Source of the DNA: Candidatus Nomurabacteria bacterium GW2011_GWA2_40_9 | GTDB lineage: Bacteria; Patescibacteriota; Minisyncoccia; Phycocordibacterales; UBA9973 | Direction: 5' to 3' | Assembly: GCA_000993955.1 (NCBI GenBank) | Contig: LBZW01000005.1 | Coordinates: forward strand, 1 to 33,498 | Length of the DNA: 33,498 nucleotides | Shown here: positions 32,363 to 33,407 of the stretch, piece by piece | Position numbering within the stretch: the stretch's first letter is position 1 | Layout of the letters: each line of letters begins with the position of its first letter | The notes under the pieces: generated by a model | What the model saw: the letters and a program-made list of their open reading frames with translations, nothing else | Database searches by the model: none | Told to the model about the DNA's origin: nothing | Position numbers and translations under genes: made by a program

Positions 32363-32611
32363 ATGGCGAAAATATGTGTTATAACTAAAAAGGGTTCAAT
32401 AGTCGGGGGCGGATACTCAAACCGTACTCGTGCGACCAAATTCAACCCGACTGGCAAGAAACGCAAATTCCCAAATCTCCAGAAAAAGAGAGTGTTTGTG
32501 CCTGAACTCAATAAAACTATAACTATCGAAGTTTCCACTCGTGGCCTCCGCACAATAAAGAAAAACGGCGTATACGCTACCCTCCTCAAAGCTGGATTGG
32601 TGAAAACTTAA
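32363..32611 (+). CDS. rpmB: 50S ribosomal protein L28
   Basis: MAKICVITKKGSIVGGGYSNRTRATKFNPTGKKRKFPNLQKKRVFVPE. Confidence 0.95.
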   Translation: MAKICVITKKGSIVGGGYSNRTRATKFNPTGKKRKFPNLQKKRVFVPELNKTITIEVSTRGLRTIKKNGVYATLLKAGLVKT

Positions 32612-32625
32612 ATAATACCGAGTGC

Positions 32626-32655
32626 TTGCATATATCTGATACTTTATGTTATACT
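32626..32655 (+). promoter_or_regulatory. promoter of candidate ncRNA
   Basis: TTGCAT-18-TATACT. Confidence 0.6.
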
Positions 32656-32661
32656 TGATGT

Positions 32662-32756
32662 ATAACTAGCTTACAAGGACAAATTCCTTTTAGGAAAAGT
32701 TTAGTAATAAACTACTTGCAAAGCTGACCGCCCCGAAAGGGGCGGTTTTCGTTTTT
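32662..32756 (+). ncRNA. candidate structured small RNA (~95 nt) with intrinsic terminator
   Basis: Outer stem AGCTT-a-CAAG/CTTG-ca-AAGCT enclosing TTCC(ttttta region)GGAA and AGTTTA-gtaa-TAAACT hairpins, then ACCGCCCCgaaaGGGGCGGTTTTCGTTTTT. Confidence 0.6.
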
Positions 32757-33300
32757 ACTCCTCTAAAATAATTAGTATTTTTTTGACAAATTTTGAATAG
32801 AGATATTGAACTCTTTCGTCCTCTGGGTTTTCGTATCTATATCTAACTACTCCAGCAATAGCATCTGCTATACGCAATGCAGGATATGCTTCATCGTTTG
32901 CTGTTTTTAATTTTTGAACAGAAATACCTTTGTCACGCAAAACTTTTTTAAATTTTCTTTCATAACTTTTACTTTTTTTACCATCTATTATCATAGATAT
33001 GACATTTCTCTCAACTACCAAGTGTTGCAAGGCATATTCGTAACCGCTACTAGCAAAAAATGGGTTTTTTATTAAAGCTATTTTTATTTTAAAATCTTGT
33101 TTGCAAATTTCTTCTATGAAAAGCTTTCTCACGCTCCATGCACTATGTGACCAATGAAAATTTTTTATCCCTATTTTCTTTTCTGCCTCTAAAACTGCGT
33201 TTTGCAAAACATCCAAATTTTCAACGGTAATATAAACCAGAGCAATAGATGATTTACCTTTTTGTTTATCTACACCTGATTCGTCTAGAAAAATGTACAT
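32755..33300 (-). CDS. DUF3800 domain protein (RNase H-fold-like)
   Basis: MYIFLDESGVDKQKGKSSIALVYI...ALRIADAIAGVVRYRYE. Confidence 0.88.
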   Translation of the reverse strand: MYIFLDESGVDKQKGKSSIALVYITVENLDVLQNAVLEAEKKIGIKNFHWSHSAWSVRKLFIEEICKQDFKIKIALIKNPFFASSGYEYALQHLVVERNVISMIIDGKKSKSYERKFKKVLRDKGISVQKLKTANDEAYPALRIADAIAGVVRYRYENPEDERVQYLYSKFVKKILIILEE

Positions 33301-33327
33301 TTGGATATTTTAACATAAAAATTTTAA

Positions 33328-33378
33328 GAAAAACGGCGCTTATGCTACTCTACTAAAAGCTGGATTGGTGAAATAAAA
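33328..33378 (+). pseudogene. ectopic 3' fragment of a second rpmB (L28) copy
   Basis: AAGAAAAACGGCGCTTATGCTACTCTACTAAAAGCTGGATTGGTGAAATAA = KKNGAYATLLKAGLVK*, matching the rpmB C-terminus KKNGVYATLLKAGLVKT*. Confidence 0.85.
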
Positions 33379-33402
33379 AAGAGGCGGCCCTACGGGGCCG
33401 CC
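33376..33402 (-). terminator. intrinsic terminator for a minus-strand gene entering from the right edge
   Basis: Minus strand GGCGGCCCCGTAGGGCCGCCTCTTTTTTATTTC. Confidence 0.75.
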
Positions 33403-33407
33403 TTGAA

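What the first reader, a model, noticed from the sequence alone, without database searches (positions are those of the whole stretch)
32626..32756. Candidate independent ~95-nt structured ncRNA after rpmB
TTGCAT-18-TATACT is followed by a compact three-way-junction-like fold: AGCTTaCAAG pairs with CTTGcaAAGCT, enclosing hairpins TTCC/GGAA and AGTTTA-GTAA-TAAACT. A strong intrinsic terminator (ACCGCCCCgaaaGGGGCGG-TTTTCGTTTTT) follows. There is no ORF and no downstream co-directional gene, so a cis-riboswitch role is unlikely.
Basis: partly seen in the sequence, partly recalled or inferred. Interest (0 to 1): 0.7.

Follow-up and report, generated by a model that had tools for sequence, protein, structure and literature searches.

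The report
Mobile RNA-plus-nuclease gene cassette
The predicted small RNA is real and belongs to a known but functionally uncharacterised family (DUF3800-II RNA); it forms a compact unit with a neighbouring RNase HII-like nuclease gene, and that unit looks like a mobile cassette that was inserted at the end of a ribosomal-protein gene.

Summary
In detail: promoter, compact three-way-junction RNA and terminator are at the stated place. It is not an orphan RNA: it scores 64.9 bits (cut-off 43.2) to Rfam RF02961, DUF3800-II RNA. In Patescibacteria, 34 of 35 loci of this protein clade carry the RNA, always convergent; the other is cut by a contig end. The stems covary strongly. The AlphaFold model matches archaeal RNase HII, and a DEDD-type acid set is invariant. 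The unit behaves as a cassette. In the window 48 bp of the rpmB end recur (42/48) just beyond the DUF3800 gene. Six of 34 units have such flanking direct repeats (6 of 363 controls). Two same-genus genomes carry the unit at different sites, each empty in the other. In a third genome a toxin-antitoxin pair sits at the same rpmB site with the same tail duplication. Best guess, partly inferred: a mobile RNA-protein module, probably a nuclease effector held or shaped by its RNA, spread by recombination at host-gene tails. The RNA family is known; the cassette biology, and a second such family outside Rfam, appear new.

The parts
32363..32611 (+). rpmB (ribosomal protein L28), the host gene at whose 3' end the cassette sits
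   Evidence: Pfam PF00830 50.3 bits; matches in 41/41 related genomes
32558..32605 (+). functional copy of the rpmB tail (RNA-side direct repeat, 48 bp)
   Evidence: 42/48 identical to 33326-33373; score 66 against a shuffled maximum of 24
32626..32655 (+). promoter of the RNA: TTGCAT-18-TATACT, extended -10 TGTTATACT
   Evidence: sequence; position conserved in homologues
32662..32729 (+). DUF3800-II RNA core (RF02961), three-way junction
   Evidence: 64.9 bits, E 2e-11; covariation in all four helices
32726..32755 (+). intrinsic terminator, stem 32726-32747 plus T-rich tail; 3' end of the transcript
   Evidence: sequence
32755..33300 (-). DUF3800 protein, 181 aa, RNase HII-like fold; convergent partner of the RNA
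   Evidence: PF12686 31.3 bits, cut-off 21; AlphaFold pLDDT 88 and Foldseek hits to RNase HII
33326..33373 (+). displaced copy of the rpmB tail (gene-side direct repeat); in-frame stop at 33374-33376
   Evidence: also found by the L28 protein search (G000:C5:33317-33373)
33382..33403 (.). hairpin after the displaced tail (GGCGGCCC-TACG-GGGCCGCC), taken as the original rpmB terminator
   Evidence: in several relatives with an empty site rpmB is followed directly by a terminator
32612..33325 (.). inferred cassette (about 714 bp): promoter, RNA and terminator facing the DUF3800 gene
   Evidence: bounded by the two rpmB tail copies; comparison with empty sites

Best explanation
32612-33325 is a mobile two-gene cassette: a short structured RNA (RF02961) with its own promoter and terminator, facing a gene for a small RNase HII-fold nuclease (DUF3800). 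Shown by sequence: the RNA, its partner gene, their fixed convergent arrangement, covariation, the nuclease fold with an invariant DEDD-type acid set, patchy distribution, and insertion at the rpmB end with a duplicated tail. Inferred: (i) the conserved RNA binds the nuclease and holds it inactive or shapes its activity, as RNA antitoxins do for other effectors, so that the unit acts as an addiction or defence module; (ii) cassettes spread when DNA carrying cassette plus host-gene tail recombines with the recipient's tail, leaving one tail copy on each side. Step (ii) needs no recombinase of the cassette's own.
For: RNA identity: RF02961. Partner: PF12686. Fixed architecture: a genome scan with the protein gave 35 patescibacterial loci; 31 have an RF02961 match over cut-off and L065, L070 and L079 are added by the session model; all lie on the strand opposite to the gene; L087 is cut by its contig end. 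Structure: 91.9% of cells paired, 185 double-change cells against 55.5 shuffled, slid controls 19-36. RNA and protein distances correlate (Mantel r 0.51, 0/5000). Nuclease: invariant D6, E7, D106, D146 in 33 proteins; AlphaFold model; best PDB matches are archaeal RNase HII, E about 1e-5. Mobility: direct repeats in 6/34 units against 6/363 control window pairs, p 1.6e-4: L069 37/37, L064 59/61, L059 59 bp, window 48 bp, L057 82 bp, L063 121 bp; in all six the RNA-side copy begins 52-72 nt from the RNA 5' end. RNA in 2/80 same-genus genomes, at different places; rpmB site empty in G358, polA site empty in the window's genome. Only 12 of 595 locus pairs share a flanking protein, some of them trivially. 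Same tail duplication (113 bp, 98%) around a toxin-antitoxin pair at the rpmB site of G385. The window's two tails differ at six positions that change one amino acid (P 0.004 for random changes), as expected of two tails that each evolved under selection. No variable unpaired segment: unpaired AAC, GACAAA and AAAG are among the most conserved positions, as for a protein-binding RNA. Natural competence is shown in Saccharibacteria (PMC10633639); an RNA neutralising an effector by direct binding is shown for AbiF/RCd22 (PMC12373285).
Against: Nothing here measures RNA-protein binding, toxicity, nuclease activity or defence. RNA antitoxins of type III systems are co-directional and upstream of the toxin; this RNA is convergent. 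28 of 34 units have no clear flanking repeat; these may be older or may have come by another route. The window's displaced tail lies 125 bp from a contig end of a 75%-complete MAG, and the next native gene (DEAD-box helicase) is not joined to it in this assembly. One RNA copy (L011) has no recognised DUF3800 gene beside it, and L010 and L081 hold a second RNA.
Confidence: 0.6

Rival explanations
1. Transposon-like element: the DUF3800 RNase H-fold protein, perhaps with its RNA, is itself the integrase, and the flanking repeats are long target-site duplications.
For: RNase H fold; retroviral integrases appear lower in the Foldseek list; direct repeats up to 100% identical bracket the unit; patchy distribution.
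Against: Repeat length varies from 37 to 121 bp; no inverted repeat between the flanks of the window unit above shuffles; the same kind of tail duplication surrounds a toxin-antitoxin pair without any DUF3800 gene; the closest fold is RNase HII, not integrase.
Confidence: 0.1
2. RNA-guided nuclease: the RNA directs the RNase H-fold protein to nucleic acid targets, as omega RNA does for TnpB or IscB.
For: RNase H-fold nuclease plus small structured RNA in a mobile unit; DUF3800 proteins occur in some type V-A2 and VI-F CRISPR loci (PMC12669027; PMC10910872).
Against: No variable single-stranded segment that could be a guide: the RNA is paired or conserved throughout and ends in a terminator. 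RNA and gene are convergent, and the RNA does not run into flanking DNA.
Confidence: 0.06
3. Antisense regulator: the RNA pairs with the 3' end of the DUF3800 mRNA (type I-like).
For: RNA and gene are convergent, and in 7 of 35 tabulated units the gene's end overlaps the RNA core by 18-21 nt.
Against: In most units the gene ends 0-117 nt before the RNA core, so overlap is confined to terminator or tail; the conserved part is a three-way junction with fixed unpaired bases, which simple antisense would not require.
Confidence: 0.1
4. Ordinary 3' end of the rpmB transcript: only read-through into a terminator.
For: No other terminator was found between the rpmB stop and 32726, so read-through into this terminator probably occurs as well.
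Against: Same RNA and promoter next to many unrelated genes; several relatives without the cassette have a plain terminator after rpmB.
Confidence: 0.02

Closest known systems
DUF3800-II RNA, Rfam RF02961 (Weinberg et al. 2017, from my own knowledge; paper not held)
   Same: Sequence and structure over the full model, 64.9 bits; adjacent DUF3800 gene
   Different: Nothing in the RNA itself.
Other DUF3800 RNAs: RF02968 DUF3800-IX (beside the second DUF3800 gene of this genome, L052, and in L089, L090), RF02962 DUF3800-III (L092, L098)
   Same: RNA on the strand opposite to the gene, just past its stop
   Different: Different RNA models and more distant proteins; no direct repeats found in the DUF3800-IX loci
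RNA-controlled effectors: AbiF/RCd22 and type III toxin-antitoxin systems such as AvcID
   Same: Small unit of a ncRNA and an effector protein; the RNA neutralises the protein (PMC12373285; PMC10511110)
   Different: In AbiF and ToxIN-type systems the RNA lies upstream and co-directional, with repeated motifs; here it is single and convergent, and neutralisation is untested
RNase HII
   Same: Fold (Foldseek E about 1e-5) and an Asp-Glu pair in a DESG motif with two further invariant Asp
   Different: No significant sequence match to any solved chain; activity and substrate unknown

Membership tests
RF02961 DUF3800-II RNA | covariance-model score above the curated cut-off | tested here: met
   64.9 against 43.2 bits over positions 1-69/69
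RF02961 DUF3800-II RNA | association with a DUF3800 gene | tested here: met
   PF12686 at 32755-33300 (-); 34/35 loci
RF02961 DUF3800-II RNA | stems supported by covariation | tested here: met
   (alignment fitted to the model, so it leans towards it; slid controls far lower)
RF02961 DUF3800-II RNA | discrete transcript in the cell | not testable with these tools
   promoter and terminator only by sequence
PF12686 DUF3800 | score above gathering cut-off | tested here: met
   31.3 against 21 bits
RNase HII | RNase HII fold | tested here: met
   TM-score only about 0.5-0.6
RNase HII | DEDD active site | tested here: inconclusive
   D6, E7, D106, D146 invariant, placed in strand 1, at the end of the strand 102-106 and in helix 142-157 of the model; not superposed atom by atom
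RNase HII | sequence-level homology to known RNase HII | tested here: not met
Type III toxin-antitoxin | RNA upstream, co-directional, usually tandem repeats | tested here: not met
   RNA convergent and single
Type III toxin-antitoxin | RNA neutralises protein by binding | not testable with these tools
   needs an experiment
RNA-guided nuclease (OMEGA type) | variable guide segment | tested here: not met
Transposon / insertion sequence | terminal inverted repeats and a fixed-length target duplication | tested here: not met

The most novel reading that the evidence does not exclude
Patescibacteria carry a class of mobile cassettes, each a small RNase H-fold (or other small) protein facing its own structured RNA. 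They accumulate singly or in arrays at the ends of host genes, using copies of the host-gene tail as recombination sites: a recombinase-free counterpart of integron arrays. DUF3800-II is one type; an 'IDQSG' RNase H-fold protein with an RNA family absent from Rfam is another.
Probability: 0.4. Interest if true: 0.75.

Novelty: new member of a known kind. Interest (0 to 1): 0.52.

Why it matters
DUF3800 RNAs have, as far as I could find, been catalogued without a function. Showing that the DUF3800-II RNA faces an RNase HII-like nuclease gene in essentially every locus, and that the pair moves as a cassette and displaces gene tails, turns an orphan RNA family into a testable RNA/nuclease module. 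It also suggests how tiny, gene-poor bacteria exchange such modules without obvious transposases.

Tried and rejected
Viral contigs hold no relative of the protein. PDB sequence search found no homologue. NCBIfam gave nothing for the DUF3800 protein, and PADLOC only a weak match to retron RT-DUF3800 models (E 0.0016). I tested whether the functional or the displaced rpmB tail is nearer to the genus: neither is, and the two are nearer to each other (42/48) than to any other rpmB tail examined (at most 41/48), so the donor must be close or the duplication local. Inverted repeats at the cassette ends were not found. The own-genome helicase 3' end is not assembled next to the displaced tail. The high flanking-repeat score of L058 was discounted because N-masked stretches inflate it. 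A literature search for gene cassettes with direct repeats in the Candidate Phyla Radiation found no paper. The paper that defined the RNA family is not held, so what it says of arrangement or function could not be checked.

Full report
1. The observation. The sequence is as described: TTGCAT 32626-32631, 18 bases, TATACT 32650-32655, RNA core 32662-32729, terminator stem 32726-32747. The stretch folds far better than shuffles (z -4.96), though part of that is the terminator and the plain MFE fold pairs the outer stem otherwise.

2. Identity. The whole-window Rfam scan gives one match over cut-off, RF02961 DUF3800-II RNA, 64.9 bits against 43.2, over the full model. The RNA is therefore a member of a catalogued family.

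3. Structure. The alignment was fitted to the model, so the count leans towards it, but the margin is large. Unpaired AAC, GACAAA and AAAG are among the most conserved positions. A promoter lies at a fixed distance in front: 31/34 units have TGnTAnnnT, 21/34 at least 9/12 matches against 2.5% of shuffles.

4. Partner. A scan of bacterial genomes with the protein alignment gave 35 patescibacterial loci plus distant DUF3800 proteins. 31 of the 35 have an RF02961 match over cut-off, and L065, L070 and L079 are added by the session model; L087 is cut by its contig end. The RNA is always on the strand opposite to the gene, past its start and at its 3' side. In 7 of 35 tabulated units the gene's end overlaps the RNA core, otherwise the gap is mostly 0-117 nt (the two larger gaps come from interrupted or mis-delimited reading frames). 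RNA and protein distances correlate. Distant DUF3800 proteins carry RF02962 or RF02968 RNAs in the same arrangement, and the window's own genome has a second pair of the DUF3800-IX type (L052).

5. The protein. AlphaFold on 33 sequences gives pLDDT 88; the best solved structures are archaeal RNase HII (E about 1e-5), with retroviral integrases further down. D6-E7 (in DESG), D106 and D146 are invariant. The motif and spacing resemble the RNase HII active site as I know it from the literature; I did not superpose atoms. An earlier paper calls DUF3800 an RNase H fold with a catalytic rearrangement (PMC10910872), so the exact relation is open.

6. It is a cassette. A 48-bp stretch of the rpmB end (32558-32605) recurs at 33326-33373, 42/48 identical, followed by a stop and a hairpin. 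Across 34 units, 6 have flanking direct repeats scoring 60 or more, against 6 of 363 control window pairs (p 1.6e-4): 37/37 in L069, 59/61 in L064, and longer, more diverged ones in L059, L057, L063. The control pairs come from the same loci and are not fully independent, and L057 lies in a repeat array. In all six the RNA-side copy begins 52-72 nt from the RNA 5' end, that is just upstream of the promoter. Same-genus relatives often have rpmB, a terminator and then a convergent helicase gene, which I take as the empty site. G358 has its unit after polA instead and an empty rpmB site; the window's genome has an empty polA site, like most of the genus. Only 2 of 80 genus genomes hold the RNA.

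7. How it moves (inference). In G385 a ParD-like/RelE-like pair sits at the same rpmB site with a 113-bp, 98% duplication of the rpmB tail and part of its terminator. So tail duplication does not depend on DUF3800. In the window the two tails differ at six positions that change one amino acid (P 0.004 if random); both tails seem to have evolved under selection, as expected if one came with the cassette from a close relative. Recombination between tails would give exactly this. Natural competence is documented in Saccharibacteria (PMC10633639). The two tails are nearer to each other than to any other rpmB tail examined, so a local duplication is not excluded.

8. Arrays. The Uhrbacteria contig L013 holds about eight copies of a 100-230 bp tail repeat, separated by single-gene cassettes, one of them the DUF3800-II unit. 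Most other cassettes also show a promoter-like site and a structured stretch facing the gene. One type, an 'IDQSG' protein, was followed: AlphaFold pLDDT 95 with RNase H topology, weak Foldseek matches to RNase HI (E 0.01). RNAs in the same position fold alike by eye in several genomes and have no Rfam match. I did not build a model for it.

9. Function. Shown: conserved RNA, conserved nuclease-like protein, near-obligate pairing, signs of mobility. Not shown: binding, activity, phenotype. I favour an effector held or shaped by its RNA, because the RNA is constant and has no guide-like segment, because the unit has the size and lifestyle of toxin-antitoxin modules, and because RNA neutralisation by direct binding is established for AbiF/RCd22 (PMC12373285) and an RNA antitoxin is described for AvcID (PMC10511110). 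The convergent layout differs from those.

10. Verdict.

Noticed in passing
L013:1-6480 (G248:C36; same contig as L057) and L058: Arrays of single-gene cassettes separated by copies of a host-gene tail repeat; cassettes include DUF3800, NYN and unannotated proteins, most with a facing promoter-like site and structured stretch.
   Followed up: partly
L129, L130, L131, L132, L134, L144: Candidate RNA family outside Rfam (about 60-85 nt, starts near ATCGGG, closing stem doubles as terminator) facing an RNase H-fold 'IDQSG' protein.
   Followed up: partly
L041:1750-1900 (G396, after rpmB): Another promoter plus structured RNA plus terminator after rpmB, facing an unannotated 164-aa ORF that resembles by eye the 143-aa ORF in array L013; no Rfam match.
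   Followed up: partly
L051:2608-3455 (G385, rpmB site): ParD-like/RelE-like toxin-antitoxin pair inserted at the rpmB end with a 113-bp, 98% tail duplication.
   Followed up: yes
L052:5048-5762 (own genome, C9): Second DUF3800 RNA/protein pair of the genome, type DUF3800-IX, same convergent layout.
   Followed up: partly
L010:1994-2062, L081:4828-4892, L011:1501-1575: Extra DUF3800-II RNA copies beside a unit (L010, L081) and one copy without a recognised DUF3800 gene (L011).
   Followed up: no
window 32649-32667: The -10 region and RNA start form an inverted repeat, GTTATAC-TTGAT-GTATAAC, possibly an operator.
   Followed up: no
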